A stretch of 64,000 nucleotides of DNA, from NCBI RefSeq assembly GCF_036169555.1, contig NZ_CP108032.1:4650001-4714000 (forward strand), given 5' to 3'. Positions within the stretch are counted from its first letter, which is position 1, and each line of letters starts with the position of its first letter. Under the pieces are notes generated by a model that made no database searches, had not been told where the DNA came from, and saw nothing but the letters and a program-made list of their open reading frames with translations. Origin of the DNA: Streptomyces sp. NBC_00306 (GTDB lineage: Bacteria > Actinomycetota > Actinomycetes > Streptomycetales > Streptomycetaceae). Positions 8,733-59,673 of this stretch are shown piece after piece. The position numbers and the translations under genes were made by a program.

Positions 8733-8785
8733 CCCGCTGCCACGGGTGATTCCCCGCCGCCCGGACTCCGACGAAGGGAGCCGCT

Positions 8786-10555: not shown

Positions 10556-10588
10556 GCCGGCCCGGACCGTGGTGGCCCGGATCTCTCC

Positions 10589-10606
10589 GCCGGACCCGGG
10601 TCCGGC
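10589..10606. terminator. 18-nt perfect palindrome between convergent genes
   Basis: GCCGGACCC followed directly by GGGTCCGGC, between the antiporter stop (10555) and the stop of the convergent GH15 gene (10622). The position suits a bidirectional transcription terminator of the U-less type common in Streptomyces. Confidence 0.5.
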
Positions 10607-10621
10607 AGGTCTCCGCGGTAC

Positions 10622-12463: not shown

Positions 12464-12677
12464 GACGAGCCCCTTCCGGGTTCCCTTCGCTCAGCTTAAG
12501 CACGGACCCCACGGGCGGGCCTGCCGAGAAGGCGGTGCCGCAGTCGCGGCCTTCTGCCGCTGCGGCCGTCCCCGAGCGGCCTTAACGTGGTGGGGGAGGG
12601 CTGTGCCGAGCCGGAACTGGAGGGCGTCCTGTGCGGTACCGCCGAGCACCGGCTCCCACGAGTGGACGGGCCCGCAC

Positions 12678-13991: not shown

Positions 13992-14065
13992 CCAACCGCG
14001 GCCGGACGGTTTCTGAGTCGTTCAGTCGGGCGAGGGCGAACGGCCAGAAGGACAGGCGCATTCAG

Positions 14066-14310
14066 TTGTCGCTCCGGATCGTGACGGGAGCGGACGGAGT
14101 CGTATGCGCGGGCGGCGGGGCGACGGGCGGCGGGCGGCGGGCGCTCTCGGCGGAACGGGCCGCGTGGGAGGCGGCGTTCCGGACGGCGGTCGGCAACCCG
14201 GTGCCGGTGGGGTTCGTACCTCCCGAAAGCGTGTCGTACCCGGTGAAACCCGGCACGGCCCAAGAGGATGTGGCGCTGGTCGTGACGTCCACCGGGGCGC
14301 GAGGCGGTCG
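14066..14310 (+). other. Orphan coding-like frame in the 349-nt gap 13992-14340
   Basis: Between the DUF2254 stop and the permease start, one + frame keeps strong third-position GC and ordinary amino-acid composition (for example AERAAWEAAFRTAVGNPVPV) for about 80 codons. Coding character then decays near 14310. GTG codons exist but no ribosome site precedes them. It may be a remnant of a gene, an unannotated small protein, or chance in high-GC DNA. I see no other feature in the gap. Confidence 0.2.
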
Positions 14311-14340
14311 ACAGCCTGGACGGCCACTACGGAAGGTGCG

Positions 14341-15819
14341 GTGGCTGAGATGGCGAAGGAGACGATGGATGCGCAGGACAGCGAGAGTGCCGTCGAACTC
14401 GGGGGCTACCGGCAGGAGCTGAAACGGACGCTCGGCTCCTTCCAGGTGTTCGCGATCTCGTTCGCCTTCATCTCGGTGGCGGTCGGCATCTTCGCGACGT
14501 ACGACGAAGTGCTGTTGACCGCGGGGCCGGTCGGGATCTGGCTCTGGATCATCGCGGCGGTGGGGCAGACCCTGGTGGCCTTGGTGGTCGCGCAGTTCGC
14601 GGCCCGCATCCCGCTCAGCGGCTCCTCCTACCAATGGGCCTCGCGGCTGGCGAACCCGAAGATCGGCTGGGGATTCGGTTGGCTGACCTTCTGTTACCTG
14701 GCGATCGGCGTGGTGGCGGTCGACAACGCCCTGGCGAGTCAGGCATTCATGCCGCTCCTCGACATGGAGCCCGACGAGGGCACCGCGCGTCTGATCACCC
14801 TGGTGGTGCTGTTCATCCAGACCGTGCTCGCCGTGGCCTCCACACGCCTCGTCAGCCTGATCAACGTGGCGGCGGTGGGACTCGAACTGCTGCTCGTCGT
14901 GGGCGTGGCGATCGCGCTGATCATTGCTGTGCTGGTCACAGGTGACGGTGCGGTCGGCAACCTCACCTCGCGGGGTGTCACCGAGAACGCCACCGACTAC
15001 TTCGCCGTCGGCGGCGGACTGATGATCGCGATGATCATGGGCCTCGCCACACTCGTCGGGTTCGACTCCGCGGCGAACCTGGCCGAGGAGGCCAAGGACC
15101 CCTATCGCTCCGTCCCCCGCGCGATCGTGGGATCGGTCGTGGCGGCCGGGCTCCTGGGACTGCTCTTCCTGATCACGCTCACCGTCGCGATCGACGACAT
15201 CTCCAGGATCAGCGCGGACGGCTCCCCGGTCGCGGCGATCATGCGCGTCCACCTCGGTCCGGGGATGGAGGCGGGGCTGCTGATCGCGATCACGATCGCG
15301 TTCTTCGGCGCCGGGATCGTGGGGATGGTCGCGTGCGCACGGCTTGTCTTCGCGATGTCGCGCGATGGGCGCTTCCCTGCCCACCAGCTGATGCGGCGGG
15401 TCAACCGGCGCACGCGGACACCGATCCCGGCGACGATCCTGATCTTCGTCCTCGGAGTCGTCCTGATGGTCGCGCTGCCTGGCGCCGCGCTGCTGGAGCT
15501 GATCACGGCATCGACCATCCTCCCGGCGATCATCTACGGCTCGACGATCGTTCTCTATCTGGCGGTGCGCGGACGGCTGGATCGCAGGAAGGGCGCGTTC
15601 GACCTCGGGCGCTTCGAGCTGCCCGTCGCGATCTGCGCACTGGTGTGGACGCTCGTGGCGCTGTTCGTGCTGGTGACACCCGGGGAGGCGCTGGTCTCCG
15701 TCGTGATCGTGGCCGGCCTGCTCGTCGGCGGCGGGCTGTTCTTTCTCGTCATGCTGACCTTCGACCGCCAGGCACTGGAGACCGAGCCCGGGGAGGCGGA
15801 CGCCTTCGGCGAGAGGTGA
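14341..15819 (+). CDS. APC family amino acid permease
   Basis: A proton-coupled amino acid (or choline/GABA-like) permease of the APC superfamily, 492 residues. Seen: about twelve membrane helices; the helix-1 GIFATYD region; the conserved GFDSAANLAEEAKDPYRSVPRAI loop (shown for orientation around residues 240-260), which is diagnostic of APC transporters; and FGAGIVGMVACARLVFAMSRDGR in the helix-8 region. The start is uncertain: GTG 14341 has GGAAGG 4 nt upstream, ATG 14350 is in frame, and ATG 14365 has AAGGAG just upstream. Neighbours give no substrate clue. Confidence 0.9.
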   Translation: MAEMAKETMDAQDSESAVELGGYRQELKRTLGSFQVFAISFAFISVAVGIFATYDEVLLTAGPVGIWLWIIAAVGQTLVALVVAQFAARIPLSGSSYQWASRLANPKIGWGFGWLTFCYLAIGVVAVDNALASQAFMPLLDMEPDEGTARLITLVVLFIQTVLAVASTRLVSLINVAAVGLELLLVVGVAIALIIAVLVTGDGAVGNLTSRGVTENATDYFAVGGGLMIAMIMGLATLVGFDSAANLAEEAKDPYRSVPRAIVGSVVAAGLLGLLFLITLTVAIDDISRISADGSPVAAIMRVHLGPGMEAGLLIAITIAFFGAGIVGMVACARLVFAMSRDGRFPAHQLMRRVNRRTRTPIPATILIFVLGVVLMVALPGAALLELITASTILPAIIYGSTIVLYLAVRGRLDRRKGAFDLGRFELPVAICALVWTLVALFVLVTPGEALVSVVIVAGLLVGGGLFFLVMLTFDRQALETEPGEADAFGER

Positions 15820-16027
15820 CGACGTGAGCGGGTGACGGGTGAATCTGCGTGCGGCGGAATCTGCGTGCGGCGGCCGTAGCGGGCGCGTGCGGGGCCTTCT
15901 TGTCGTCCCTGTCGTCCCTGTCGTCCCTGTCGTCCTTGTTGTTCTTGTCGTCGGAATGCGTCGCCGGAGCGGGGTGGGCCGGAGGAGGCGCGGCCGACGG
16001 GGCCGTCGTGCGCGGAGTCCCGCTCAT
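15749..16027 (-). CDS. Possible small Asp/Arg-repeat protein (doubtful)
   Basis: A 92-codon minus-strand frame with high third-position GC in its first half. Its centre reads DDKNNKDDRDDRDDRDDKK because it covers the 9-nt tandem repeat at 15901-15954. The N-terminal part is Pro/Ala/Thr-rich; the C-terminal part is Arg/Pro-rich and overlaps the end of the permease gene by 71 nt. No good ribosome site precedes the ATG at 16027. It could be a real disordered protein or only repeat-driven open frame. No function is suggested. Confidence 0.25.
   Translation of the reverse strand: MSGTPRTTAPSAAPPPAHPAPATHSDDKNNKDDRDDRDDRDDKKAPHAPATAAARRFRRTQIHPSPAHVVTSRRRRPPPRARSPVPGGRRSA
15841..15872. repeat. Exact 16-nt tandem duplication
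   Basis: GAATCTGCGTGCGGCG occurs twice head to tail just after the permease stop codon. It is a recent replication-slippage duplication, close to the 9-nt repeat array. Confidence 0.9.
15901..15954. repeat. 9-nt microsatellite, six imperfect units
   Basis: Six consecutive 9-mers: three are TGTCGTCCC and the other three differ by one to a few bases. The period is a multiple of three, so a minus-strand frame keeps reading through it as Asp-Asp-Arg/Lys. Confidence 0.9.
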
Positions 16028-16130
16028 GTTGGGTGGCCATGTGGTGTCCGTGGGTGACCAGGGGTGGGGGGTGTCCCCGCCCGGGACCACCGAAAACCGC
16101 CCCCGGCCACGGGTGGGGTACCGTTGACGA

Positions 16131-16234
16131 CTGCGAAGGGGAGTAGCCCCGCGAACCGGTCGTCGACACACTGGAGCCCCCGGGCTCCCGGTGGCCGGGC
16201 CTGCGGATGACGCGGGCGGGCGAGACCTTCGGTC
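16131..16234 (+). promoter_or_regulatory. yybP-ykoY (manganese) riboswitch upstream of GDT1 family exporter
   Basis: The leader contains the two conserved blocks of the yybP-ykoY class. The first is CGAAGGGGAGTAGC (from 16134). The second is GAGACCTTCG (16222-16231). CGAAGG (16134-16139) pairs with CCTTCG (16226-16231) to form the basal P1 stem, with GC-rich hairpins between. The class binds Mn2+ and activates Mn exporters. The gene 116 nt downstream is exactly such an exporter family, which strengthens the call. The expression platform lies in 16235-16349; it has no poly-T terminator, so control may be by ribosome-site masking. Confidence 0.8.
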
Positions 16235-16349
16235 AGGTATGACGTGCCCGCGCCCTGCGGGTTCGCCGTCGTGCCGGGCCGAGCGGTCCTCCGTCGCCTC
16301 TGGCGCTTCGCGAAGATCGGGGCCCGGCGCTTACAGAAAGCCACCCGGA

Positions 16350-16934
16350 ATGAGCCTCGACCCTCTGGCGATCGTCACCGCCTTCGGACTGATCTTCCTC
16401 GCGGAACTTCCCGACAAGACGATGTTCGCCTCCCTGGCCATGGGCACGCGGATGCGCCCTCTCTACGTCTGGTTCGGCACATCGAGCGCTTTCCTCGTGC
16501 ACGTCGCGATCGCGGTCGGAGCGGGCAGTCTGATCGGGCTTCTGCCGGACTGGATCGTCAAGCTCGTCTCCGCTCTCCTCTTCGCCTTCGGCGCGTTCAT
16601 GCTGCTGCGCGGCGGAGCCGAGGACGACGAGGAGGGCGCCGGCGGCAAGACCGTGACCGGCTTCTGGCCCGTCTACTCGACCGCATTCATGGCGGTGTTC
16701 ATCAGCGAGTGGGGCGACCTCACCCAGATCACCACCGCCAACCTCGCCGCGAGCAACGGCACGTGGTCCACCGCCATCGGCTCCGCCGCCGCCCTCATGT
16801 CCGTCTCCGCTCTGGCTCTGCTCGCCGGCCGCTTCATCGCCAAGCGCGTGCCGCTGAAGACCGTGCAGCGCATCGGCGGCCTGTGCATGCTCGGTCTCGC
16901 CATCTGGTCGGTGACCGAGATCTTCACGGGCTGA
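16350..16934 (+). CDS. GDT1/TMEM165 (UPF0016) family manganese exporter
   Basis: A 194-residue membrane protein of the UPF0016/GDT1 family, known in bacteria (MneA-type) and eukaryotes to export Mn2+ (or Ca2+). Seen: six hydrophobic helices in two repeats, each with the acidic signature, here ELPDKTMFASL near residue 19 and SEWGDLTQ in the second half, separated by an acidic loop (EDDEEGAGGK). ATG at 16350 is preceded only by a weak ribosome site, consistent with riboswitch control. The yybP-ykoY leader just upstream makes manganese the likely substrate. Confidence 0.9.
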   Translation: MSLDPLAIVTAFGLIFLAELPDKTMFASLAMGTRMRPLYVWFGTSSAFLVHVAIAVGAGSLIGLLPDWIVKLVSALLFAFGAFMLLRGGAEDDEEGAGGKTVTGFWPVYSTAFMAVFISEWGDLTQITTANLAASNGTWSTAIGSAAALMSVSALALLAGRFIAKRVPLKTVQRIGGLCMLGLAIWSVTEIFTG

Positions 16935-47661: not shown

Positions 47662-48318
47662 ATGAGTGCGGTCAAGGGCGTGAAGAGCAAGCGCATGCCG
47701 AGGGCGGTGCGCGAGCGGCAGATGATGGACGCCGCGGTGCAGACGTTCGGGCAGCGCGGCTACCGGGCGGCCTCGATGGACGAGATCGCGGAGCTGGCCG
47801 GGGTCTCCAAGCCCCTGGTCTATCTGTATCTGAACTCCAAGGAGGAGTTGTTCACGGCGTGCATCCGCCGTGAGGCCGCCGCGCTCATCGCGGCCGTGGA
47901 GGCGGCGGTGGAGCCGGGGCTGCCGGCGGACCGGCAGCTGTGGGCCGGGCTCGCGGCGTTCTTCACGCACACCGCCGAGCACCCGGACGGCTGGGCCGTG
48001 CTGCACCAGCAGGCGCGGACGCACGGGGAACCGTTCGCGCTCGAAGTGGCCGCGATGCGCGACGAGATCGTCACCTTCGTGACCGGTCTGATCGCGACCG
48101 CGGCCCGCGAGGCGGGGGCTGCCCGGCAGGACCCCGAACTGGCCGACCGGGACGTGGCGGGCCTCGCGCAGGCGCTGGTCGGTGCGGCCGAGTCGCTGGC
48201 CGGGTGGATGAACCAGACGGGTGCGGTGTCGGCGAAGGAAGCCGCGGCGACGCTCATGAACTTCGCCTGGATGGGCCTCGGTGAGCTCATGAAGGGTGAG
48301 CGCTGGTCCTCCCGCTGA
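47662..48318 (+). CDS. TetR/AcrR family regulator of the adjacent lipid genes
   Basis: A 218-residue TetR regulator. Seen: HTH over residues 15-62 (MMDAAVQTFGQRGYRAASMDEIAELAGVSKPLVYLYLNSKEELF) and a helical ligand-binding domain containing HTAEHPDGWAVLHQQARTHGEPF. ATG at 47662. Its 3' end overlaps the end of the convergent MaoC gene by 32 nt. Boxes upstream of itself and between the fabG and thiolase genes suggest that it controls both. The ligand could be an acyl-CoA, by analogy with FadR/FasR-type TetR proteins. Confidence 0.9.
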   Translation: MSAVKGVKSKRMPRAVRERQMMDAAVQTFGQRGYRAASMDEIAELAGVSKPLVYLYLNSKEELFTACIRREAAALIAAVEAAVEPGLPADRQLWAGLAAFFTHTAEHPDGWAVLHQQARTHGEPFALEVAAMRDEIVTFVTGLIATAAREAGAARQDPELADRDVAGLAQALVGAAESLAGWMNQTGAVSAKEAAATLMNFAWMGLGELMKGERWSSR

Positions 48319-49147
48319 GATGGATGCGGTCGCCGCTGCGGAGCTGGAACGCCGTACCGGAGCCGGCCGGCTCCGCGGCGTAGGTCACGGATGCGGGCAG
48401 CAGCACCGGCGCCCTGAACTCGGCGCTCGCCGCCGTGAGTTGCGGGCTGGCCGACTCCGCGAGGCAGCGGGCGAAGGTCCACATCCCGTGGGCGATCGCC
48501 CGGGGGAAGCCGAAGGCCCTGGCGGTCAGCGGATGCAGATGGATGGGATTGCGGTCGCCGGACGCCGCGCCGTAGCGGCGTCCCAGGTCCGCCGGGAGCT
48601 GCCAGGTGCCGACGGCGGGCAGAGGCTCGTCGGGACGGTGGTCCGTGTCGTGCGCGGTCCGGTGCCGCGTTTCGGGCGCCGGGCGGTCGGTGTCGTACGA
48701 CGTCCGGTGCCGGGCCAGATAGCCGCTGCGGGACTCCCACACCAGGTCGCCGTCCCGGTGCGCCCGGGTGACGACGGTGACCTCGGTGCCCCGCCGGTGC
48801 GGGGTCAGCGCCTCGGCATGGACGGTCAGGACGGGCGTGTCCTCGGGGGTCAGCGGCCGGTGCCCGGTGATCTCGATACGGGTGTGGACCAGCCCGAGCA
48901 GCGGGAGCGGGAAGCGGCGGGCGGCCATCAGGCGCATGGCGAGCGGGAAGCCCAGGACATGCGGATAGGGGAGCGGGAGGGGTCCGTCGCCCGGGAAGCC
49001 GCAGATCCGGGCGTACGCGGCGAGGCGCGCGGGATCGATACGGACGGGGCCGCCGATCCGGGTCGCGGGCAGTTCGGCGTCCGCGTGGACGCCGCGCTTC
49101 AGCGGTGAGGTGAGGGCCCCGCGGGCCAGGGTGAGGGCGAGTGGCAT
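48287..49147 (-). CDS. MaoC-like hot-dog dehydratase (HtdX-like)
   Basis: A 286-residue double hot-dog protein of the MaoC/hydroxyacyl-thioester dehydratase group. Seen: an N-terminal half with LPLPYPHVLGFPLAMRLMA and a C-terminal half with YGAASGDRNPIHLHPLTARAFGFPRAIAHGMW, the latter carrying the Asp-x4-His hydratase motif. It acts on 3-hydroxyacyl thioesters. It is transcribed after the two-domain FabG gene with a single-base gap. The gene order resembles mycobacterial Rv0241c-Rv0242c. ATG 49147. Confidence 0.88.
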   Translation of the reverse strand: MPLALTLARGALTSPLKRGVHADAELPATRIGGPVRIDPARLAAYARICGFPGDGPLPLPYPHVLGFPLAMRLMAARRFPLPLLGLVHTRIEITGHRPLTPEDTPVLTVHAEALTPHRRGTEVTVVTRAHRDGDLVWESRSGYLARHRTSYDTDRPAPETRHRTAHDTDHRPDEPLPAVGTWQLPADLGRRYGAASGDRNPIHLHPLTARAFGFPRAIAHGMWTFARCLAESASPQLTAASAEFRAPVLLPASVTYAAEPAGSGTAFQLRSGDRIHLSGRTSAHPS

Positions 49148-49148
49148 G

Positions 49149-50498
49149 TCAGGCTCCCAGCAGGCTCTGGCCGCAGACGCGCAGCACCTGGCCGGTGACC
49201 GCACCGGACCCGGGGTGGGCGAACCAGGCCGCGGCTTCCGCGACATCGACGGGGAGCCCGCCCTGGGCGAGGGAGTTCATCCGGCGTCCCGCCTCCCGGA
49301 CGAACAGCGGGACGGCGGCCGTCATCCGGGTCTCGATGAAGCCGGGCGCGACGGCGTTGACGGTGATGCCCCGGTCGGCGACGCGGGGAGCGAGGGAGCG
49401 GACGAGGCCGATGATCCCGGCCTTGCTCGCCGCGTAGTTGGTCTGGCCGGTGTTCCCGGCGATACCGGCGATGGACGAGGTCGCGACGATCCGGCCGCCG
49501 TCCCCGACCACCCCGGCTTTCAGGAGCGCGTCGGTGATGTCGAGTACGGCGGTGAGATTGACGTCCAGGACCGAACTCCACCGGTCCGCGGGCATGTTGG
49601 CGAGGCGCCGGTCGCGGGTGATGCCCGCGTTGTGGACCAGGATGTCGAGGCCGTCGGGGAGGGCGGCCGTGATGCGGTCGGCCGCGTCGGCGGCGGTGAT
49701 GTCGAGGGTGAGCGCGGTGCCGCCGATCCGGTCGGCGGTGGCCCGGAGGTCGGCCTCGGCCGGGGGCACGTCCAGGCAGAGGACGTCCGCGCCGTCGCGG
49801 GCGAGGGTCTCGGCGACGGCCGCCCCGATGCCGCGCGCCGCGCCGGTGACCAGAGCGGTACGCCCGGCGAGCGGGCGCGCGGGATCGCCGCCCGCCGCCC
49901 GCTCCTCGTCCACCGCGCGCCCGGCGATCTCGATGACCTGCCCGCTGATGTAGGCGGACTTGGGCGAGAGCAGGAAGCGCAGGGTCGATGCGGCTGCGGC
50001 GGGAGCGGTGAGGCGGACGAGGTTGGCGGTGCGTCCGCGGCCCAGCTCCTTGCCCAGGGAGCGGGTGAATCCCTCCAGCGCCTGCTGAGCGGCGGCCTGG
50101 TGGTGATCGTCGGCCGCGAGCGGTGAGCCGAGGACGACCACCCGGCCGCCGGCGCCGAGTGACCGTACGGCCGGGTGCAGCGCGGCGTGGACCTCGGCGA
50201 GTCCTGCGGCGGAGGTGACGCCGGTCGCGTCGAGGACGAGGGCGGCGGGCGTCTGCCGCCCCGCGGGTCCCTCGTCCGGCGCGGTGAGCGGCAGCCCGGC
50301 GTCGGTCAGCGACAGCCCGGCGTCGGACAGCGGCTCCCGCAGCGCCGAACTCCCGGCGGTGAGCCGCAGCAGCGGCCCGTCCAGGGCGGGCGTGTCGGCG
50401 CTCCAGCGGCGCAGAGGGTGCGGCTGGGGCAGGCCGAGCCGACGGGTCAGAAATCGGCCGGGTGCTGTGCGGGTGAGGTGCAGATAGCGATCGGCCAT
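49149..50498 (-). CDS. Two-domain 3-oxoacyl-ACP/CoA reductase (FabG4-like, high molecular weight)
   Basis: A 449-residue reductase. Seen: an N-terminal 200-residue degenerate Rossmann-like domain and a C-terminal classical SDR domain with TGAARGIG (218-225), HNAG, Ser342, Tyr355 and Lys359. This layout is that of the high-molecular-weight FabG4 of mycobacteria, which reduces long 3-oxoacyl-CoA using NADH. ATG at 50498 follows AAGGACA. It forms a two-gene unit with the MaoC gene and is divergent from the thiolase. Together, thiolase, reductase and dehydratase could run a CoA-level chain elongation or shortening cycle. Confidence 0.92.
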   Translation of the reverse strand: MADRYLHLTRTAPGRFLTRRLGLPQPHPLRRWSADTPALDGPLLRLTAGSSALREPLSDAGLSLTDAGLPLTAPDEGPAGRQTPAALVLDATGVTSAAGLAEVHAALHPAVRSLGAGGRVVVLGSPLAADDHHQAAAQQALEGFTRSLGKELGRGRTANLVRLTAPAAAASTLRFLLSPKSAYISGQVIEIAGRAVDEERAAGGDPARPLAGRTALVTGAARGIGAAVAETLARDGADVLCLDVPPAEADLRATADRIGGTALTLDITAADAADRITAALPDGLDILVHNAGITRDRRLANMPADRWSSVLDVNLTAVLDITDALLKAGVVGDGGRIVATSSIAGIAGNTGQTNYAASKAGIIGLVRSLAPRVADRGITVNAVAPGFIETRMTAAVPLFVREAGRRMNSLAQGGLPVDVAEAAAWFAHPGSGAVTGQVLRVCGQSLLGA

Positions 50499-50526
50499 TG
50501 TCCTTGCTCCCAGCTCGGTCGTAGAT

Positions 50527-50558
50527 TTACTCAAGAGTAAGGTTACTGAGAAGTCAGG
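50527..50558. promoter_or_regulatory. Tandem operator boxes between the FabG4-like and thiolase genes
   Basis: TTACTCAAGAGTAAGG (50527-50542), with a perfect TTACTC-AA-GAGTAA palindrome, is followed directly by a weaker copy TTACTGAGAAGTCAGG (50543-50558). The pair lies centrally in the 71-nt divergent gap and could control both genes. The TetR regulator at 47662 is the leading candidate to bind. Confidence 0.65.
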
Positions 50559-50569
50559 AGCTGGTCGAG

Positions 50570-51832
50570 ATGTTCGCTCACGCGCCTCGCCGGGTCGCGG
50601 TGATCGGTGGCAGCCGTATCCCCTTCGCCAGGTCCGACGGTGCCTACGCCACCGCCTCCAACCAGGAGATGCTGGGCGCCGCGCTGGACGGGCTCGTCGA
50701 GCGGTACGGCCTCCAGGAGCCGGACGCGGTGGGCGAGTTCGTCGCCGGCGCCGTCCTCAAGCACAGCCGTGACTTCAATCTCGCTCGCGAGACCGTCCTC
50801 GGCTCGGCGCTCGACCCGCGGACCCCCGCGTACGACATCCAGCAGGCCTGCGGCACCGGACTGCAGGCGATCATCGCCGTGGCGAACAAGATCGCGCTCG
50901 GCGCGGTGGACAGCGGGATCGCGGGCGGCGCCGACACCGCGAGCGACGCACCGCTCGGCGTCAACGACGAGCTGCGCCGGATCCTGCTGGAAGCGCGCCG
51001 GGCGAAGGGGGCGGGCGGCCGGCTGCGGGCGCTCGCGCGGATCCGGCCGCGGCACCTCGTGCCCGACATCCCGCGCAACGCCGAACCCCGCACCGGGCTG
51101 TCGATGGGCGAGCACGCCGCGATCACCGCACGGGAGTGGGGGATCGGCCGCACCGAACAGGACGAGCTGACCGTCGAGAGCCACCGCCGGCTCGCCGCCG
51201 CGTACGACCGCGGGCTTCTGGACGACCTCGTCGTGCCGTACCGGGGCCTGGCCCGGGACGGGAATCTGCGGCCCGGCTCCACCGTGGAGAAACTCGCCAC
51301 GCTGAAGCCGGTGTTCGGCACGGCGCACCCCGACGCGACGATGACCGCCGCCAACTCCACCCCGCTCACCGACGGCGCGGCCACCGTGCTGCTGGCGAGC
51401 GAGGACTGGGCGGCGGCGCGGGGTCTGCGGCCGCTCGCCTTCCTCACGGCGTACGAGACGGCCGCCGTCGACCATGTCGGCGGGCGGGACGGACTGCTGA
51501 TGGCACCCGTGTACGCCGTCCCCCGGATGCTGGAGCGGGCCGGGCTCACCCTCGGCGATTTCGATCTGGTGGAGATCCACGAGGCGTTCGCCTCGCAGGT
51601 GCTCGCCACGCTGGCCGCCTGGGAGAAGCAGGGCCTCGCTCCCGTGGACCGGGCGCGGCTGAACGTCGGCGGCTCCTCGCTCGCGACCGGGCATCCGTTC
51701 GCCGCGACGGGCGCGCGGATCGTCGCGACGCTCGCCACGCTGCTGGCGGAGCGGGAGGGTCCGGGACGCGGACTCGTCTCGGTCTGCGCGGCGGGCGGCC
51801 AGGGGGTCACGGCGATCCTCGAACGTGCCTGA
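50570..51832 (+). CDS. Acetyl-CoA C-acyltransferase (thiolase, FadA2-like)
   Basis: A 420-residue thiolase that condenses or cleaves acyl-CoA. Seen: nucleophile Cys94 in QQACGTGLQA, ADTASDAPLG, the EIHEAFASQVLATL block, His375 in GSSLATGHPFAATG and Cys406 in VSVCAAGGQG. All three catalytic positions are present. ATG at 50570 follows TCAGGAG. It is divergent from the reductase. This gene set (MaoC, FabG4-type, thiolase) resembles the mycobacterial htdX-fabG4-fadA2 group. Confidence 0.94.
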   Translation: MFAHAPRRVAVIGGSRIPFARSDGAYATASNQEMLGAALDGLVERYGLQEPDAVGEFVAGAVLKHSRDFNLARETVLGSALDPRTPAYDIQQACGTGLQAIIAVANKIALGAVDSGIAGGADTASDAPLGVNDELRRILLEARRAKGAGGRLRALARIRPRHLVPDIPRNAEPRTGLSMGEHAAITAREWGIGRTEQDELTVESHRRLAAAYDRGLLDDLVVPYRGLARDGNLRPGSTVEKLATLKPVFGTAHPDATMTAANSTPLTDGAATVLLASEDWAAARGLRPLAFLTAYETAAVDHVGGRDGLLMAPVYAVPRMLERAGLTLGDFDLVEIHEAFASQVLATLAAWEKQGLAPVDRARLNVGGSSLATGHPFAATGARIVATLATLLAEREGPGRGLVSVCAAGGQGVTAILERA

Positions 51833-51907
51833 ACCCCGCCCTCCCGTGGGGCCGTTGCCCCGCAGCCACGCCCCCCCCGCATGTCCCACGCGCACAAGGA
51901 GTCGCCC

Positions 51908-53785
51908 GTGACCGCCGAACCGGTCGAGCCGAGCAAGAGCCTTCAGGGCGGTGTCGTACGCGAGGTCCTTCTGCCGCCGCTCGTGCCCGTCGTCCGCCAC
52001 GGTTCGCTCGCCGACATCCCCTTCGACAACGCACGCGAGGCGCCCGCCGACGCGGTCCTCAGCCGCAAGGGCCCCGGCGGCGACTGGAAGGACGTGACGG
52101 CCGGTGAGTTCGCGGACCAGGTGCTGGCGGTGGCCAAGGGCCTGATCGCCGAAGGGCTGCGGCCCGGCGACCGGCTCGCGATCATGTCCCGTACGACCTA
52201 TGAGTGGACGCTGCTCGACTTCGCGGCCTGGGCCGCCGGGCTGATCACCGTCCCCGTCTACCCGACCTCGTCCGCGTTCCAGGCCCGCTGGATCCTCCAG
52301 GACTCGGGAGCCGTCGCGTGCGTCGTGGAGGACACCGCCCAGGCGCGGTTGATCAGCCAGGAACGCAAGCAACTGCCCGACCTCACCCGGCTGTGGGCGT
52401 TCGCCACGGGCGCGGTGGACACGCTCATGAAGGCGGGCGCGCAGATACCCGACACGGTCGTCACCGCGCGGCGGGGCGGCCTGGGGCCGGAGTCGGTCGC
52501 GACACTGCTCTACACCTCGGGAACGACCGGCCGCCCCAAGGGCTGTGTCCTCACCCACGGGAACTTCTTCGCCGAGGTGGACAACGCGATCGAGCTGCTG
52601 CACCCGGTCTTCCGGTCGCTGAGCCGCGAACCCGCCGCCACGCTGCTCTTCCTGCCGCTGTCCCACGTGTTCGGGCGGATGGTGGCGGTGGCCTGTCTGC
52701 GGGCCCGCGTGCGGCTCGGGCACGCACCCTCCATCCGGACCGAGGACCTGCTCGCCGACCTGGCCGGCTTCCGGCCCACGTTCCTGCTCGCCATTCCCTA
52801 CGTCCTGGAGAAGGTCTACAACACCGGCCGCGCGACGGCCGAAAAGCTCGGCCGGGCCTCGTCGTTCGACCGGGCGGCGAGGATCGCCCGGCGCTACGGG
52901 GAGGCGGTGGAGGCGGCCCACCACGGCACCGGACCGGGGCCCTCGCGGTCCCTGCGAGCCGCCCGCGCGCTGTACGACCCGCTGGTCTACCGGCGTATCC
53001 GTGCCGCACTCGGCGGCAAGGTCCGGTACGCGATCTGCGGAGGTTCACCGCTCGGACGCCGCCTCGCCGCCTTCTACGCCGGAGCCGGTGTCCAGGTCTT
53101 CGAGGGGTACGGGCTCACCGAGACGACGGCCGCGGCCACCGTGACGCCGCCGCTCAAGCCCCGGATGGGCACGGTCGGTTGGCCCCTGCCCGGAACAGCG
53201 GTACGGATCGCCGACGACGGCGAGGTGCTGCTCCGCGGCGGCCAGGTGTTCAGCGGGTACTGGGACCGGGAGCGGGGTGCGATCGTGCCGGTGACCCGGG
53301 ACGGCTGGTTCGCCACGGGCGACCTCGGTTCGATCGACGCCGACGGCTATCTGACCATCACCGGTCGCACGAAGGACATCCTCATCACCTCCGCAGGGAA
53401 GAACGTCGCCCCGGCGCCGCTGGAGGACTGGCTGCGCGCCCACCCGCTCATCGGCCAGTGCATGGTGGTCGGCGACAACCGCCCCTATGTCACCGCCCTG
53501 TTGACGCTGGAGCCCGACGGCATCGCGCACTGGTGCCGGATGAAGAAGAAGCAGCACCTCACCGCGGCCCAACTGGCCGTGGACGAGGACCTGCTGGCGA
53601 CGCTCCAGCGCGCGGTGGACGAGGCGAACCGGCTGGTGTCGAGGGCCGAGTCGATCCGCCGCTTCCATGTTCTGGCAGGGGACTTCACGGAGGAGAGCGG
53701 CCATCTGACGCCGTCGCTGAAGCTGCGGCGGAGCGCGATCGCGCGTGACTTCACGGCGGAGATCGAGGGCCTGTACCGCCGGTGA
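51908..53785 (+). CDS. Long-chain fatty acid-CoA ligase (AMP-binding, FadD15-like)
   Basis: A 625-residue acyl-CoA synthetase that activates fatty acids with ATP. Seen: the P-loop-like YTSGTTGRPKGC, YGLTETTAAATV, the GDLGSIDADGYLTITGRTKD hinge region, and the GKNVAPAPLED segment carrying the C-terminal lysine region. GTG at 51908 follows AAGGAG with 6-nt spacing and begins VTAEPVEPS; an ATG at 51881 is in frame but has no ribosome site. It is 75 nt after the thiolase and likely co-transcribed, supplying acyl-CoA to the cluster. Confidence 0.93.
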   Translation: MTAEPVEPSKSLQGGVVREVLLPPLVPVVRHGSLADIPFDNAREAPADAVLSRKGPGGDWKDVTAGEFADQVLAVAKGLIAEGLRPGDRLAIMSRTTYEWTLLDFAAWAAGLITVPVYPTSSAFQARWILQDSGAVACVVEDTAQARLISQERKQLPDLTRLWAFATGAVDTLMKAGAQIPDTVVTARRGGLGPESVATLLYTSGTTGRPKGCVLTHGNFFAEVDNAIELLHPVFRSLSREPAATLLFLPLSHVFGRMVAVACLRARVRLGHAPSIRTEDLLADLAGFRPTFLLAIPYVLEKVYNTGRATAEKLGRASSFDRAARIARRYGEAVEAAHHGTGPGPSRSLRAARALYDPLVYRRIRAALGGKVRYAICGGSPLGRRLAAFYAGAGVQVFEGYGLTETTAAATVTPPLKPRMGTVGWPLPGTAVRIADDGEVLLRGGQVFSGYWDRERGAIVPVTRDGWFATGDLGSIDADGYLTITGRTKDILITSAGKNVAPAPLEDWLRAHPLIGQCMVVGDNRPYVTALLTLEPDGIAHWCRMKKKQHLTAAQLAVDEDLLATLQRAVDEANRLVSRAESIRRFHVLAGDFTEESGHLTPSLKLRRSAIARDFTAEIEGLYRR

Positions 53786-54256
53786 CAGCGCGACACCGCG
53801 ACGACACCGCGACAGCGATGACACCGCGTCCGTGCGCCGTGGCGCGGGTCGTGCGGACCATGGGTCCGGAAAAGCGCTCCGGAGTCACCCGGGGTGACGT
53901 GACCGGCACCCTGCGGAGGGGGATTAGGGCCGATTCGTGCGTGCGCTTCGCCACAGCCGGACAAATCTCTACGCGCGGGTAGGCCGCCTTCCGCGGTTCC
54001 CGACTCCCCGGGGCGAGCTGCGACGATGCCCACCTGTCGGGGGTCCGGCAGGGCAGTGCCACTTACCGGCCTTGTGCCCCGGACAACAGGCGAGTCGGGT
54101 CAACGCTGGATAAACTCCTCGTTTGCCGTGCGCGGAACGGGGATTCGCAGCGCACTCCACGACCGAGGGAGAGTGAGAGATGCGTACCAGGCCGTCGCGT
54201 GTCGACCGGGGCGAGCGCGGTCCCGGGGATCTGTCCGCCGGCGAACGGCGGACTGC
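53786..54256. other. 471-nt gap before the Pls/PosA-like gene
   Basis: No convincing gene lies here. Seen: a short ACACCGCGA-type repeat (53789-53828), the inverted repeat GTCACC-CGG-GGTGAC at 53884-53898 followed by another GTGAC, and a locally AT-richer piece around 54105-54125 (GGATAAACTCC) that could hold a -10 for the synthetase gene. The gap size suggests a regulated promoter. Confidence 0.45.
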
Positions 54257-57200
54257 ATGACCGTCGCCCCGGAGACCCCGGCTCTCCTCGAAACCCTTCT
54301 GGCCGAAGCGCCCTCCCCGGCGCTCTACACCGCCGGCGGCGCCGCACCCGAGCGCACTCTCGTCGACATGCTCGACGAGACCGCCCGCCGCCACCCGGAC
54401 GCTCTCGCCGTCGACGACGGCGTCGCACCCCTCACCTACCGTGCGCTCCTCGACGAGGTCGAGACGCTGCGCCGGCAGCTCGCCGAGACCGGCACGGGGA
54501 CCGGCGACCGGGTGGGCATACGCGTCCCCTCCGGGACCGCCGACCTGTACGTCTCCATCCTCGCCGTCCTCGCGGCCGGCGCCGCCTACGTCCCCGTCGA
54601 CGCCGAGGACCCCGACGAGCGCGCCGACCTCGTGTTCACCGAGGCCGCGGTGAGCGCCGTCATCGGCGAAGGCCGCACCATCGTCCCGAGCAGCACCCCC
54701 GGCGGCGACACCGGCCGCAGGCCGGCGCCCGACGACGACGCCTGGATCATCTTCACCTCCGGCTCCACCGGCAAGCCCAAGGGCGTCGCCGTCACCCACC
54801 GCAACGCCGCGGCGTTCGTCGACGCGGAGGCCGGTCTCTTCCTCACCGGCGCCCCGCTCGGCCCCGGCGACCGCGTCCTGGCCGGCCTCTCCGTCGCCTT
54901 CGACGCCTCCTGCGAGGAGATGTGGCTGGCCTGGCGGCACGGCGCCTGCCTGGTGCCCGCCCCCCGCTCCCTCGTCCGCACCGGACTCGACCTCGGCCCC
55001 TGGCTCGTCGAACAGCGCATCACCGTCGTCTCGACGGTCCCCACACTCGCGGCCCTGTGGCCCGCTGAAGCGCTCGACGAGGTACGTCTGCTGATCTTCG
55101 GCGGTGAGGCCTGCCCGCCCGAGCTGGCGGAACGCATGGCGGTCCCCGGCCGCGAGGTGTGGAACACCTACGGCCCGACCGAGGCCACCGTCGTCGCCTG
55201 CGCGGCCCCGCTGACCGGCGAGGGCCCGGTGCGCATCGGCCTGCCGCTCGACGGCTGGGAGCTCGCCGTCGTGGACGGCCGCGGCGAGATCGTGGCGATG
55301 GGCGAGACCGGCGAGCTGGTGATCGGCGGCGTCGGCCTGGCGCGCTACCTGGACGAGGCGAAGGACACCGAGAAGTACGCTCCCCTGCCCGCACTCGGCT
55401 GGGACCGCGCCTACCGCAGTGGTGACCTGGTGCGCGCGGAGGAGGAGGGCCTGCTCTTCGTGGGCCGCGCCGACGAGCAGATCAAGCTCGGCGGCCGCCG
55501 TATCGAGCTGGGCGAGATCGACGCGGCGCTCCAGGCGCTGCCGGGCGTGGCAGGCGCGGCGGCGGCGGTCCGCACGACCGGTGCGGGCCATCAGCTGCTG
55601 GTGGGCTACGTCGTACCGGCGGCGCCGGACGGCGTGACGCCCGCGGACGTGCTCGACGACTCCGCCGAGGTGCGGGAGACCGAGGGCGCCGAGGCCGTGG
55701 CTCAGGGAACGGACGCGCCCGCCGATGCACCGGCCGCCGCGGATGCCGATATCGACCACGCCGACGCCGACGCCGGTATCGATGCCGACGCCGTGCCCGA
55801 CGCCGCCGTCGCGTTCGACCTCGACGACTCGCTCGCGCGGCTGCGCAAGGAGCTGCCCGCCGCGCTCGTCCCGCTCATCGCCGTCGTCGACGATCTGCCG
55901 ACCCGCACCTCCGGCAAGGTCGACCGCAACGCCCTGCCCTGGCCGCTGCCGAACACCGGCACCGGCGACAGCGCTCAGGCCGCCGAGCTCACCGAGACCG
56001 AGGCCTGGCTCGCCGAACAGTGGACCGACCTCCTGGGCGTGCCGGTGAGCGGGCCCGACGCCGACTTCTTCGCCGGCGGAGGTGGCAGTCTCGCCGCCGC
56101 ACAGCTCGTCTCGCGGATCCGTGAGCAGTACGCCACCGGGTCCGTCGGCGACATCTACCAGAACCCGACGCTCGGAGCCCTCGCGCTCACGCTGGAGCGG
56201 ACCTCCCCGCGCAGCACGAAGGCCCGCCCGGTGCGGCCGGTGCCGCGCAGGACCGGGATCGCGCAGATTCTGCTCATGCTGCCGCTGCTGACCGTCACCG
56301 GACTGCGCTGGTCGGTCGTCGCGGCCGCCGTCAACAACGTCGTCGCCCTGCCCTGGGCCCCCACCGTCTCCTGGTGGTGGGTGGCGCTCGGCTGGCTGCT
56401 GTTCCTCAGCCCGGCCGGGCGGATCGTCATCGCCGCCGGCGGCGCGCGGATGCTGCTGCGCGGGGTGCGCCCCGGGACGTACGCGCGCGGCGGCGGCACC
56501 CATCTGCGCCTGTGGACTGCCGAACGCCTCGCCGAGCTCAGCGGTGCGACCAACCTCGCGGGCACCTGGCTCACCTACTACGCCCGCGCGCTCGGTGTCC
56601 GGATCGGCGAGGACGTCGACCTGCACTCCCTGCCTCCGGTGACCGGCATGCTCCGGCTCGGCCGCGGCAGCGCCGTGGAACCCGAGGTGGACCTCTCCGG
56701 CCACTGGCTGGACGGGGACCGGCTGCACATCGGAGCCGTACGCATCGGCGCCGGTGCCACCGTCGGCGCCCGCAGCACGCTCTTCCCCGGCGCGCGGATC
56801 GGCAAGCGCGCCGAGATCGCGCCCGGGTCCGGCGTGACCGGGACCGTGCCGGCCGACGAGCGCTGGTCCGGTGTGCCGGCCACCCGCAAGGGCAAGGCCA
56901 ACCGCCGGTTCCCCGAAGGCCGTCCCCGGCGCAGACGCCGCTGGACCGCCGTCTACTCCCTGACCTCGCTGTTCCTCAGCCTGCTGCCGGCGCTCGCGGC
57001 GCTGCCCGCGCTGCTGGTGATGGGCGCCTTCGTGGACGGCACCCACGGGCTCGGTGACGCCCTGGCCGCCGCGCTCACCGCCGTACCGCTCGCCACGCTG
57101 GTGGCGATGGCCGGCTACGCCCTGCTGATCGTCGCCGGCGTCCGTACGCTCGGCGTCGGCCTGCGCGAGGGCCATCACCCCGTGCACGGCCGGATCGCCT

Positions 57201-58321
57201 GGCAGGCATGGGCGACCGAGCGGCTGATGGACATGGCGCGCGTCCATCTCTTCCCCCTCTACGCGAGCCTGTTCACGCCCGTGTGGCTGCGGGCGCTGGG
57301 CATGAAGGTGGGCCGCGGCGTCGAGGCGTCGACGGTGCTCGCACTCCCCGCGATGACCACGGTCGGCGACGGCGCGTTCCTGGCCGACGACACACTGGTG
57401 GCTTCCTACGAACTCGGCGGCGGCTGGCTGCGGATCGCCGAGGCCCGGGTCGGCAAGCGCGCGTTCCTCGGCAACTCCGGGATGACCGCCGCCGGGCGCC
57501 GGGTGCCCAAGCGGGGTCTCGTCGGTGTGCTGTCGTCGACCCCGAAGCGGGCCAAGGCGGGCTCGTCCTGGCTCGGTATGCCTCCGATGAAGCTGCCGCG
57601 TTCGGCGGAGGAGAGCGACCAGAGCCGTACCTTCGCCCCGCCCGCCCGGCTGAAGTGGGCGCGCGCCTGCGTCGAGCTCTGCCGGATCGTGCCGGTGATG
57701 TGCAGCGTCGCGCTCGCCGTCCTCGGGCTCGCGGTCTTCGAACTGCTGGCGGCCCGGTACGGATTCACCGTCGCCATCCTGGCCGGCGGAGCGGTGCTGT
57801 TCGCCGCCGGTGTGGTGGCGTGCCTGGTGGCGATCGCGGCGAAGTGGCTGCTGGTGGGCCGGTTCAAGGCCGTCGAGCACCCGCTGTGGTCGTCGTTCGT
57901 GTGGCGCAACGAGGTCGCGGACACCTTCGTCGAGGTGCTGGCCGTGCCGTGGCTGGTCGGTGCGAGCGCCGGCACCCCGCTGATGAACTTGTGGCTGCGC
58001 GGGCTCGGCGCCCGCATCGGACGAGGTGCCTGGTGCGACACCTACTGGCTGCCCGAGGCGGACCTGGTGAGCGTCGGCAGCGGCGCGAGCGTCAACCGCG
58101 GATGCGTCGTCCAGACCCACCTCTTCCATGACCGGATCATGCGCATGGACAATGTCGTTCTCGGAGCGGGCGCGACACTCGGCCCGCACGGCATCGCGCT
58201 GCCCGGCGCGGTGATCGGCGACCGGGCCACCGTCGGTCCGGCGTCGCTGGTGATGCGCGGGGAGAGCGTGCCCGCGGACAGCCGCTGGCTGGGCAACCCG
58301 ATCGCGGCATGGCGGAAGTGA
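54257..58321 (+). CDS. Pls/PosA-type membrane non-ribosomal peptide synthetase (homopoly amino acid synthetase-like)
   Basis: A 1354-residue single-module synthetase. Domains in order: adenylation about 40-570, with A3 TSGSTGKPKG (167-176) and A10 lysine Lys554; peptidyl carrier about 575-640 with Ser611 (GGGGSLAAA); then six membrane helices in pairs (about 670-718, 897-965, 1141-1198), separating three soluble repeats rich in left-handed-helix hexapeptides. This matches S. albulus epsilon-poly-L-lysine synthetase (1319 residues). By hand alignment to GrsA the pocket is D-A-E-S-I-G-T-V-V-K, lysine-like. A D/A-rich insert (about 457-517) splits the adenylation C-terminal part. ATG 54257; no strong ribosome site. 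The product could be a cationic homopolymer; the exact monomer is inferred. Confidence 0.9.
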   Translation: MTVAPETPALLETLLAEAPSPALYTAGGAAPERTLVDMLDETARRHPDALAVDDGVAPLTYRALLDEVETLRRQLAETGTGTGDRVGIRVPSGTADLYVSILAVLAAGAAYVPVDAEDPDERADLVFTEAAVSAVIGEGRTIVPSSTPGGDTGRRPAPDDDAWIIFTSGSTGKPKGVAVTHRNAAAFVDAEAGLFLTGAPLGPGDRVLAGLSVAFDASCEEMWLAWRHGACLVPAPRSLVRTGLDLGPWLVEQRITVVSTVPTLAALWPAEALDEVRLLIFGGEACPPELAERMAVPGREVWNTYGPTEATVVACAAPLTGEGPVRIGLPLDGWELAVVDGRGEIVAMGETGELVIGGVGLARYLDEAKDTEKYAPLPALGWDRAYRSGDLVRAEEEGLLFVGRADEQIKLGGRRIELGEIDAALQALPGVAGAAAAVRTTGAGHQLLVGYVVPAAPDGVTPADVLDDSAEVRETEGAEAVAQGTDAPADAPAAADADIDHADADAGIDADAVPDAAVAFDLDDSLARLRKELPAALVPLIAVVDDLPTRTSGKVDRNALPWPLPNTGTGDSAQAAELTETEAWLAEQWTDLLGVPVSGPDADFFAGGGGSLAAAQLVSRIREQYATGSVGDIYQNPTLGALALTLERTSPRSTKARPVRPVPRRTGIAQILLMLPLLTVTGLRWSVVAAAVNNVVALPWAPTVSWWWVALGWLLFLSPAGRIVIAAGGARMLLRGVRPGTYARGGGTHLRLWTAERLAELSGATNLAGTWLTYYARALGVRIGEDVDLHSLPPVTGMLRLGRGSAVEPEVDLSGHWLDGDRLHIGAVRIGAGATVGARSTLFPGARIGKRAEIAPGSGVTGTVPADERWSGVPATRKGKANRRFPEGRPRRRRRWTAVYSLTSLFLSLLPALAALPALLVMGAFVDGTHGLGDALAAALTAVPLATLVAMAGYALLIVAGVRTLGVGLREGHHPVHGRIAWQAWATERLMDMARVHLFPLYASLFTPVWLRALGMKVGRGVEASTVLALPAMTTVGDGAFLADDTLVASYELGGGWLRIAEARVGKRAFLGNSGMTAAGRRVPKRGLVGVLSSTPKRAKAGSSWLGMPPMKLPRSAEESDQSRTFAPPARLKWARACVELCRIVPVMCSVALAVLGLAVFELLAARYGFTVAILAGGAVLFAAGVVACLVAIAAKWLLVGRFKAVEHPLWSSFVWRNEVADTFVEVLAVPWLVGASAGTPLMNLWLRGLGARIGRGAWCDTYWLPEADLVSVGSGASVNRGCVVQTHLFHDRIMRMDNVVLGAGATLGPHGIALPGAVIGDRATVGPASLVMRGESVPADSRWLGNPIAAWRK

Positions 58322-59673
58322 GCACGGGCGCGACAGCGCAGTACACGCAAGACCCAAAGGACGCACGGGTGACGGACTTGTATCTGCCGCAGCACGGCGA
58401 CAGCGGTTACGGGACGACGCGGTACGACCTGGAGCTGGACTACATCCCGCACACCGGGCGGCTGTCCGGCCGGGCCCGGATCACCGCCGTCGCCGAGCGC
58501 GCGCTGCCCGAAATCGTCCTCGACCTCGGGCAGTTCCGGCTCAGCAAGGTGCTGGTGGACGGCGCCCGCCCGGCCCGGTACACACACCGCGGGGACAAAC
58601 TCCGGATACGTCCGGCGCGACCGCTGCGGGCGGGCGCCGGCTTCACCGTCGAGGTGCGCTACACGGGAGTGCCGCATCCCGTGCGCACCCGTGACTGGGG
58701 CGACCTCGGCTGGGAGCAGCTGGACGAGGGCGCGCTGGTGGCCTCCCAGCCGCACGGCGCCCGGTCCTGGTTCCCCTGCAACGACCGCCCCGACGACAAG
58801 GCCGTGTACCGGATCGCGGTGACGGCGCCCACGCCGTACACGGTGATTGCGAACGGCACGCTCACCTCGCGCACGATGAGCGCCTCCACGACGACCTGGG
58901 TGTACGAGCAGTCCGCCCCGATGGCCACGTATCTCGCGACCGTGCAGATCGGGCCCTACGAACTGGTCGACGTCCCGCACGCGGGAGCCGTGCCGCAGCC
59001 CGCCGCCGTGCCGCGTTCGCTCCTCGGGCGCTTCGGGCGCGACTTCGCGCGCCAGCCGCAGATGATGACCGTCTTCCAGGACCTGTTCGGGCCCTACCCC
59101 TTCGACGACTACGCGGTCGTGATCGTCGACGAGGAACTGGACGTGCCGGTCGAGGCCCAGGGCCTGTCCATCTTCGGCGCGAACCACGTCGACGGGCGGC
59201 GCGGCAGCGAACGCCTGGTGGCGCACGAACTGGCCCACCAGTGGTTCGGCAACAGCCTCACGGTCGCCGACTGGCGGCACATCTGGCTCAACGAGGGCTT
59301 CGCGAAGTACGCCGAGTGGCTGTGGTCCGAGATGTCGGGCGGCCCCTCCGCGTCGGCGATGGCCGCGAAGTCCCGGGCGCGCCTGGCGCTGCTGCGGCAG
59401 GACGTCCGCATCGCCGACCCCGGTCTGCGGCGGCTGTTCGACGACCGGGTCTACGAACGCGGTGCGCTGACGCTGCACGCGCTGCGCATGGAGATCGGGC
59501 ACGCGGCCTTCGTGGGGCTGCTGCGGCAGTGGACGTCGACGCACCGGCACGGTGTGGTCACGACGGAGGAGTTCATCGCGCTGGCCCGCGAGCACTCACC
59601 GCGCCCGCTGGACAAGCTGTTCACGACGTGGCTGTACGAGCCGAAGCTGCCGCCGCTGCCGCGGCAGCGCTGA
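58309..59673 (+). CDS. M1 family zinc metallopeptidase (aminopeptidase)
   Basis: A 454-residue M1 aminopeptidase. Seen: the zinc site His306-Glu307-x-x-His310 with Glu329 exactly 18 residues on (HELAHQW, NEGFAKYAEW), and the substrate Tyr382 in RVYERGAL. It has no signal peptide or membrane helix and is shorter than PepN-type enzymes. It overlaps the Pls-like gene by 13 nt, so the two are coupled. In S. albulus an epsilon-poly-lysine-degrading aminopeptidase is reported as a zinc enzyme tied to pls; a role in trimming or self-protection against the polymer is therefore a fair inference, not proof. The family's GxMEN motif appears replaced by VEAQG (about residue 283). Confidence 0.92.
   Translation: MAEVSTGATAQYTQDPKDARVTDLYLPQHGDSGYGTTRYDLELDYIPHTGRLSGRARITAVAERALPEIVLDLGQFRLSKVLVDGARPARYTHRGDKLRIRPARPLRAGAGFTVEVRYTGVPHPVRTRDWGDLGWEQLDEGALVASQPHGARSWFPCNDRPDDKAVYRIAVTAPTPYTVIANGTLTSRTMSASTTTWVYEQSAPMATYLATVQIGPYELVDVPHAGAVPQPAAVPRSLLGRFGRDFARQPQMMTVFQDLFGPYPFDDYAVVIVDEELDVPVEAQGLSIFGANHVDGRRGSERLVAHELAHQWFGNSLTVADWRHIWLNEGFAKYAEWLWSEMSGGPSASAMAAKSRARLALLRQDVRIADPGLRRLFDDRVYERGALTLHALRMEIGHAAFVGLLRQWTSTHRHGVVTTEEFIALAREHSPRPLDKLFTTWLYEPKLPPLPRQR

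What the first reader, a model, noticed from the sequence alone, without database searches (positions are those of the whole stretch)
54257..59673. Poly(amino acid) synthetase of the Pls/PosA type coupled to an M1 aminopeptidase
The full A-T-(TM-C)x3 layout of epsilon-poly-lysine synthetase is present, with all key residues in the A and T domains. The hand-read pocket D-A-E-S-I-G-T-V-V-K is close to lysine codes. The overlapping zinc peptidase could control chain length or protect the producer. This locus may make a cationic homopolymer antibiotic.
Basis: partly seen in the sequence, partly recalled or inferred. Interest (0 to 1): 0.8.

Follow-up and report, generated by a model that had tools for sequence, protein, structure and literature searches.

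The report
Polylysine synthase with its degrading peptidase
An actinobacterial genome, probably Streptomyces, carries the known two-gene unit that makes and trims the antimicrobial polymer epsilon-polylysine, a food preservative; the genes look intact, but the arrangement is already described in the literature.

Summary
Window 54257-58321 (+) encodes a complete Pls-type synthetase: an adenylation domain, one carrier domain and three transmembrane-plus-beta-helix repeats. Its adenylation domain is 70% identical to the solved epsilon-poly-L-lysine synthase domain 7WEW, and the nine pocket residues compared (DAESIGTVV) are identical, not merely close. 133 of 136 distinct homologues share them. 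An M1 zinc peptidase with intact catalytic residues overlaps the 3' end. An M1 homologue lies downstream in 81 of 81 first-set loci (window included) and within 100 bases in 79. The eight other window neighbours tested occur in at most 1 of 80 at E 1e-30, at most 16 at 1e-5. This is the published pls-pldII operon; PldII is reported to be coupled to Pls, to affect chain length and to protect the producer (PMC8117764, PMC9223678). Corrections: the 'C domains' are beta-helix acyltransferase-like folds; the peptidase may start at GTG 58318. Not met in the passages I read: C3 residue 1291 is His in all 135 lysine-code rows and Glu in 9 of 10 others, though shared descent could explain this. Polymer production is untested.

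The parts
54257..58321 (+). pls-type epsilon-poly-L-lysine synthetase, 1354 aa (A-T-(TM-C)x3)
   Evidence: TIGR02353 786 bits, TIGR01733 329 bits; codon-position GC supports the start
54434..55561 (+). adenylation domain core (TIGR01733 extent); pocket residues D216 A217 E220 S259 I280 G282 T304 V312 V313
   Evidence: identical at 309 of 439 positions (70%) to 7WEW
55604..55909 (+). stretch before motif A10 with a long acidic insertion (102 residues here; 39-53 in 135 of 139 rows)
55916..55918 (+). A10 lysine, Lys554
   Evidence: K in 138 of 139 rows, one gap
56006..56185 (+). thiolation (carrier) domain, phosphopantetheine Ser611 at 56087-56089
   Evidence: PF00550; S in 138 of 139 rows, one gap
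56261..58303 (+). membrane polymerisation domain: three helix pairs each followed by a beta-helix (C1, C2, C3)
   Evidence: TIGR02353; AlphaFold model
58112..58132 (+). C3 motif Q1286-T-H1288-L-F-H1291-D1292, proposed single active site of the polymerisation domain (inference)
   Evidence: Q1286 and H1288 in 144 of 145 rows, D1292 in 143; residue 1291 is His in 135, Glu in 9, Phe in 1
58309..59673 (+). pldII-like M1 zinc peptidase, 454 aa from the ATG; alternative start GTG at 58318, which overlaps the pls stop codon (GTGA)
   Evidence: PF01433, PF17900; overlap seen in the sequence
59224..59295 (+). HELAH-x18-E zinc and catalytic motif of the peptidase

Best explanation
This is a pls-pldII operon. 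The A domain activates L-lysine with ATP and loads it on carrier Ser611. The membrane domain, a pseudo-three-fold set of beta-helices on a helix bundle, joins lysines through their epsilon-amines. This gives a short cationic isopeptide polymer (epsilon-poly-L-lysine) released at or through the membrane. The co-translated M1 peptidase hydrolyses the polymer, which limits chain length and protects the producer. Shown here: gene structure, motifs, identical pocket, conserved pairing, predicted folds. From the literature on S. albulus: the polymer, the coupling, and the protective and chain-length effects of PldII. Inferred: substrate, product, export route and expression in this strain. A further inference, not tested on the model: an aminopeptidase-type site could cut this polymer internally because every linkage carries a free alpha-amine on its acyl side, and this peptidase lacks the C-terminal domain present in larger M1 enzymes.
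For: A domain 70% identical to 7WEW over 439 positions, nine of nine pocket residues identical. The same nine in 133 of 136 distinct homologues (134 of 137 rows). TIGR02353 well over its cut-off. Intact A3, A10 and carrier Ser. Confident C-terminal model with three repeats, as described for PosA (PMC10522769 passages). M1 downstream in 81 of 81 first-set loci, within 100 bases in 79, and in 53 of 58 genus loci. Eight other window neighbours occur in at most 1 of 80 loci at E 1e-30. Six M1 catalytic residues kept in 134 of 134 rows. Best PDB fold match of the peptidase is the two-domain M1 peptidase of Deinococcus radiodurans, TM 0.88. Literature.
Against: No expression or product data. Some carriers are silent: C. 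variabile gave no polymer under the culture conditions tried, nor did its gene in C. glutamicum, though the gene worked in S. coelicolor (PMC8117764 Results). PldII is reported on the outside of the membrane, yet by crude hydropathy no hydrophobic N-terminus is seen in this peptidase or in 131 of 134 rows. One genus homologue with the lysine code (L166) has no M1 beside it, and the best match in its genome is 41% identical to the window's. At a looser threshold (E 1e-5) TetR-like and FabG-like proteins are also found in 15 and 16 of 80 loci, as expected of large families.
Confidence: 0.92

Rival explanations
1. The synthetase makes another cationic homopolymer (poly-ornithine, poly-Dab, poly-Dap or poly-beta-lysine).
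For: Members of the family do so (PMC10522769 and PMC8117764 passages and sections).
Against: The pocket has Ala where PosA (ornithine) has Met and the Dap/Dab enzymes have Phe, and equals 7WEW at nine of nine positions. The published Dab and Dap synthetase genes lie in a different gene context from pls-pldII. None of the neighbouring genes scanned is a diamino-acid supply gene.
Confidence: 0.05
2. The operon is intact but its main role is not antibiotic: the polymer serves inside the cell or in the envelope, and the peptidase recycles it.
For: The pair is kept in genera other than Streptomyces, such as Mycobacterium, Nocardia and Rhodococcus; the peptidases mostly lack a visible hydrophobic N-terminus.
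Against: S. albulus secretes an antimicrobial polymer, and cells of pldII-repressed strains dissolve in the fermenter (PMC9223678 passages).
Confidence: 0.15
3. The M1 peptidase is an unrelated housekeeping aminopeptidase that happens to sit downstream.
For: The genome has 8 matches to it, itself included, and its sequence is a plain M1.
Against: M1 within 100 bases in 79 of 81 first-set loci, against at most 1 of 80 (E 1e-30) or 16 of 80 (E 1e-5) for eight other window neighbours anywhere in the loci. The 53 linked M1s aligned (of 133) are 47-84% identical to the window's, whereas the seven other matches in its own genome are 30-40%.
Confidence: 0.02

Closest known systems
Pls, epsilon-poly-L-lysine synthetase (A domain solved as 7WEW)
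   Same: Domain order, nine-residue pocket, TIGR02353 domain, operon with a peptidase gene
   Different: A domain 70% identical; a stretch before A10 about 60 residues longer and acidic; the homologues nearest 7WEW (L171, L170, L172, L166, L174, L173; 74-79%) are not the window's nearest (L007, L163; 79%)
PldII, type II epsilon-polylysine-degrading enzyme of S. albulus
   Same: Adjacent and coupled to pls; aminopeptidase; similar length (1404 bp, against 1365 bp here); its Glu281 is close in number to Glu282 here
   Different: The PldII sequence was not in hand, so identity was not measured and Glu281 was not aligned
PosA, delta-poly-L-ornithine synthetase of Acinetobacter baumannii
   Same: A-T plus six-helix C-terminal domain with three beta-helices (PMC10522769 passages)
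   Different: Pocket DMEHNGTVSK against DAESIGTVVK; no M1 partner met in the passages read
Two-domain M1 peptidase of Deinococcus radiodurans (6A8Z, 6KOZ)
   Same: Two-domain M1 fold
   Different: 32% identity; GxMEN region differs; any link with a polymer synthetase was not looked for

Membership tests
epsilon-poly-L-lysine synthetase (Pls) | A-T followed by three TM/tandem domains (TIGR02353) | tested here: met
epsilon-poly-L-lysine synthetase (Pls) | Lysine pocket identical or nearly so to characterised Pls | tested here: met
   nine of nine identical to 7WEW; A10 Lys554 present
epsilon-poly-L-lysine synthetase (Pls) | Operon with a peptidase gene, unlike the Dab and Dap synthetases | tested here: met
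   overlapping genes; criterion from PMC8117764 Results; co-transcription itself not tested
epsilon-poly-L-lysine synthetase (Pls) | Activates L-Lys and makes epsilon-linked polymer | not testable with these tools
   needs assay and mass spectrometry
PldII | M1 zinc peptidase with intact catalytic residues | tested here: met
PldII | Translationally coupled to pls | tested here: inconclusive
   the frames overlap (ATG 58309 or GTG 58318; stop at 58319-58321), which fits coupling, but coupling itself was not tested
PldII | Sits outside the membrane (as reported in PMC9223678) | tested here: inconclusive
   no hydrophobic N-terminus: highest 17-residue mean in the first 60 residues is -0.45; 131 of 134 rows below 1.6; crude hydropathy only
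PldII | Hydrolyses epsilon-polylysine | not testable with these tools
   needs purified enzyme
PosA / Dab / Dap synthetases | Met or Phe at pocket position 2 | tested here: not met
   Ala217; criterion from PMC10522769 passages

The most novel reading that the evidence does not exclude
The three 'C domains' are one pseudo-trimeric acyltransferase with a single active site in C3 (Q1286-x-H1288-x3-D1292). The neighbouring residue 1291 (His in the lysine-code rows, Glu in nearly all others) helps set which side-chain amine is acylated, so the polymerisation domain, not only the A domain, carries substrate specificity.
Probability: 0.35. Interest if true: 0.45.

Novelty: new member of a known kind. 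Interest (0 to 1): 0.2.

Why it matters
Epsilon-polylysine is a commercial food preservative, so another intact pls-pldII operon adds a candidate producer with a divergent synthetase. The wider value is the comparison: 133 of 136 distinct actinobacterial homologues share the lysine pocket, and in that group the peptidase gene is adjacent in 130, further off in 2 and missing in 1. Such a pairing suggests that making this polymer without its peptidase is costly. The C3 residue that goes with the A-domain code gives a testable handle on the polymerisation step, for which PMC10522769 (2023) states that no structure was available.

Tried and rejected
Rejected: chance pairing with a housekeeping M1 peptidase; a start at 54026 (codon-position GC); another cationic monomer; a wider conserved cluster around the pair, since the eight window neighbours tested (TetR, MaoC, FabG-like, thiolase, FadD, DnaJC28, lipase, AraC) occur in at most 1 of 80 related loci at E 1e-30. 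At E 1e-5 the numbers are TetR 15, FabG 16, FadD 4, AraC 2, thiolase, DnaJC28 and lipase 1 each, MaoC 0, against M1 80; 70 of the 80 loci hold at least 7 kb on both sides. A Foldseek search with the C-terminal model gave acetyltransferase beta-helices with low TM scores in the 50 rows shown, so it adds the fold class and nothing more. Listings of two paper searches showed no solved polymerisation domain; the phrase 'pls posa family' gave no paper.

Rows dropped or to be read with care: of the 119 matches listed (my count), 58 were fetched: open frame of about 1290 aa or more, plus one cut at a contig end. The shorter A-less or broken ones, contig fragments and the three own-genome rows were not fetched there. 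L167 was left out of the pocket count because of its length, and it is poorly aligned. L050 and L149 are the same sequence in the two collections, so 138 loci are 137 distinct ones. L175 and L167 have only 417 and 644 bases after the synthetase, so their lack of an M1 says little. The M1 distance of -1045 for L129 I take as an artefact of where the alignment began, and counted it as adjacent. L095 gave no row.

Full report
What is there. The window lies in a single-contig 8.5-Mb genome, probably Streptomyces: the nearest named relative of the synthetase is from Streptomyces sp. ISL-1 (80%). The reading frame 54257-58321 (+) encodes 1354 aa. It matches the Pls/PosA terminal domain TIGR02353 with 786 bits against a cut-off of 423, and an adenylation domain TIGR01733 with 329 bits against 317. 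Pfam adds a carrier domain and hexapeptide repeats. The ORF can be read back to 54026, but codon-position GC there is flat (0.66/0.71/0.69) against 0.75/0.55/0.93 in the gene, so 54257 is the better start. A10 Lys554 and carrier Ser611 are each conserved in 138 of 139 rows with one gap.

Substrate. The A domain aligns with the solved epsilon-poly-L-lysine synthase A domain 7WEW with identity at 309 of 439 positions, 70%. The nine pocket residues are D216, A217, E220, S259, I280, G282, T304, V312 and V313; all nine are the same in 7WEW. The choice of these positions rests on recalled PheA numbering; its D-x-x-x-E part agrees with the PosA crystal structure as described in PMC10522769 (passages). 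There, pocket position 2 is Met for ornithine, Phe for Dap/Dab and Ala for lysine; the window has Ala. Of 137 homologue rows aligned (80 and 57 of the 58 genus loci), 134 share the nine residues; the other three read DFECLSVVT twice and DFEYFGTVT once. One sequence is in both collections, so the distinct count is 133 of 136.

Polymerisation domain. An AlphaFold model of the last 695 residues, built on 61 sequences, has mean pLDDT 86.3 and pTM 0.89. It shows three units, each of long helices followed by a stretch of short beta-helix strands. PMC10522769 describes this plan for a model of PosA and argues for one joint domain with approximate three-fold symmetry (passages). It is not a classical NRPS condensation domain. 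Solved-structure matches are beta-helix acyltransferases and carbonic-anhydrase-like proteins by profile and acetyltransferases with low TM scores by fold. In an alignment of 145 rows that also holds six A-less homologues, Q1286 and H1288 of C3 are kept in 144 rows and D1292 in 143. In the stretches of C1 and C2 that I matched to it by eye there is no conserved histidine; the nearest, H816 of C1, is His in 71 of 145 rows. Residue 1291 is His in 135 of 135 rows with the lysine code (134 distinct, window included), and Glu in 9 of the 10 other rows: three with other codes and six without an A domain. The tenth, L167, is Phe and poorly aligned. The lysine-code rows are each other's close relatives, so shared descent alone could explain this.

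Peptidase. The frame 58309-59673 overlaps the synthetase by 13 bases from its ATG; a GTG at 58318 overlaps the stop codon as GTGA. It has the M1 N-terminal and catalytic domains only, HELAH-x18-E, a GxMEN-like P-V-E-A-Q with Glu282, and Tyr382; His306, Glu307, His310, Glu329, Glu282 and Tyr382 are kept in 134 of 134 rows. The model (pLDDT 92.1) matches the two-domain M1 peptidase of Deinococcus radiodurans best (TM 0.88, 32% identity). A hydrophobic N-terminus is lacking here, and only 3 of 134 rows pass a crude threshold. PMC9223678 states that PldII lies on the outside of the membrane (passages). How it would get there is open.

Pairing. In the window and 80 related loci an M1 match lies downstream in 81 of 81. 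In 79 its projected start is within 100 bases of the synthetase stop; in two Tsukamurella loci it is 565 and 2106 bases away. In 58 genus loci it is found in 53; it is absent in L166, L167, L168, L169 and L175, of which L166 has the lysine code. Of 134 pairs, 63 have a start codon overlapping the pls stop and 131 have one within -50 to +130 bases. Eight other window neighbours occur in at most 1 of 80 loci at E 1e-30 and in at most 16 at E 1e-5, M1 in 80 at either. The 53 linked M1s aligned are 47-84% identical to the window's, while the seven other M1 matches in its own genome are 30-40%.

Known or new. PMC8117764 (Results read) reports that Streptomyces pls forms an operon with the peptidase gene pldII, unlike the Dab and Dap synthetases, and uses the pocket to argue for lysine. 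PMC9223678 (passages) reports translational coupling, polymer above 40 residues on pldII repression, dissolving cells in repressed strains, and a self-protection role. In a genus sample 81 of 150 genomes have a TIGR02353 match at E 1e-50, so the family is common.

Mechanism. Shown by sequence: intact activation, loading and peptidase motifs. Taken from literature: the lysine polymer and its trimming. Inferred: in epsilon-polylysine each linkage has a free alpha-amine on the acyl residue, so every internal bond resembles the N-terminal bond that an M1 aminopeptidase needs. A small M1 without a C-terminal domain could then cut internally, which fits the 'endo-type aminopeptidase' label in PMC9223678. 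This was not tested on the model.

Limits. No assay, no expression data, no PldII or full-length S. albulus Pls sequence at hand, and hydropathy in place of a real localisation predictor. Of the papers cited I read one Results section (PMC8117764), one section plus passages (PMC10522769), and passages (PMC9223678, PMC4668381).

Noticed in passing
L088 (G000:C1:778000-797900), 8207-16872: Another Pls/PosA-type gene of the genome, without an A domain (carrier + membrane domain), next to a separate A-T protein (residues at the nine pocket columns DIWQSTADD, a rough reading), a TauD-type dioxygenase, an ornithine-cyclodeaminase-like and a PLP-dependent gene. The last two resemble the cysteine-synthase/cyclodeaminase pair that makes L-Dap in the poly-Dap pathway (PMC4668381 passages). 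Possibly a split synthetase for a Dap-containing product.
   Followed up: partly
L087 (G000:C1:7785000-7804900), 8874-12071: Another Pls/PosA-type gene: three near-identical carrier domains in tandem before the membrane domain, no A domain in the protein. No A-domain match among the ten neighbouring frames scanned, seven of which matched nothing in Pfam.
   Followed up: partly
window 55604-55909: Stretch before A10 of 102 residues with a D/A-rich acidic part; 39-53 residues in 135 of 139 rows, 90 and 60 in the relatives L007 and L008, 7WEW cut short. It could bind the cationic product or simply be a low-complexity expansion.
   Followed up: partly
L074 and L085 (Tsukamurella): The only two of 81 first-set loci in which the M1 gene is well separated from pls, by 565 and 2106 bases.
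   Followed up: no
L166 (genus locus): Lysine-code synthetase with no M1 beside it; best M1 match in that genome is 41% identical to the window's.
   Followed up: partly
window 48287-53785: Fatty-acid or beta-oxidation-like genes upstream (MaoC-like, FabG-like, thiolase, FadD), not conserved beside pls elsewhere.
   Followed up: partly
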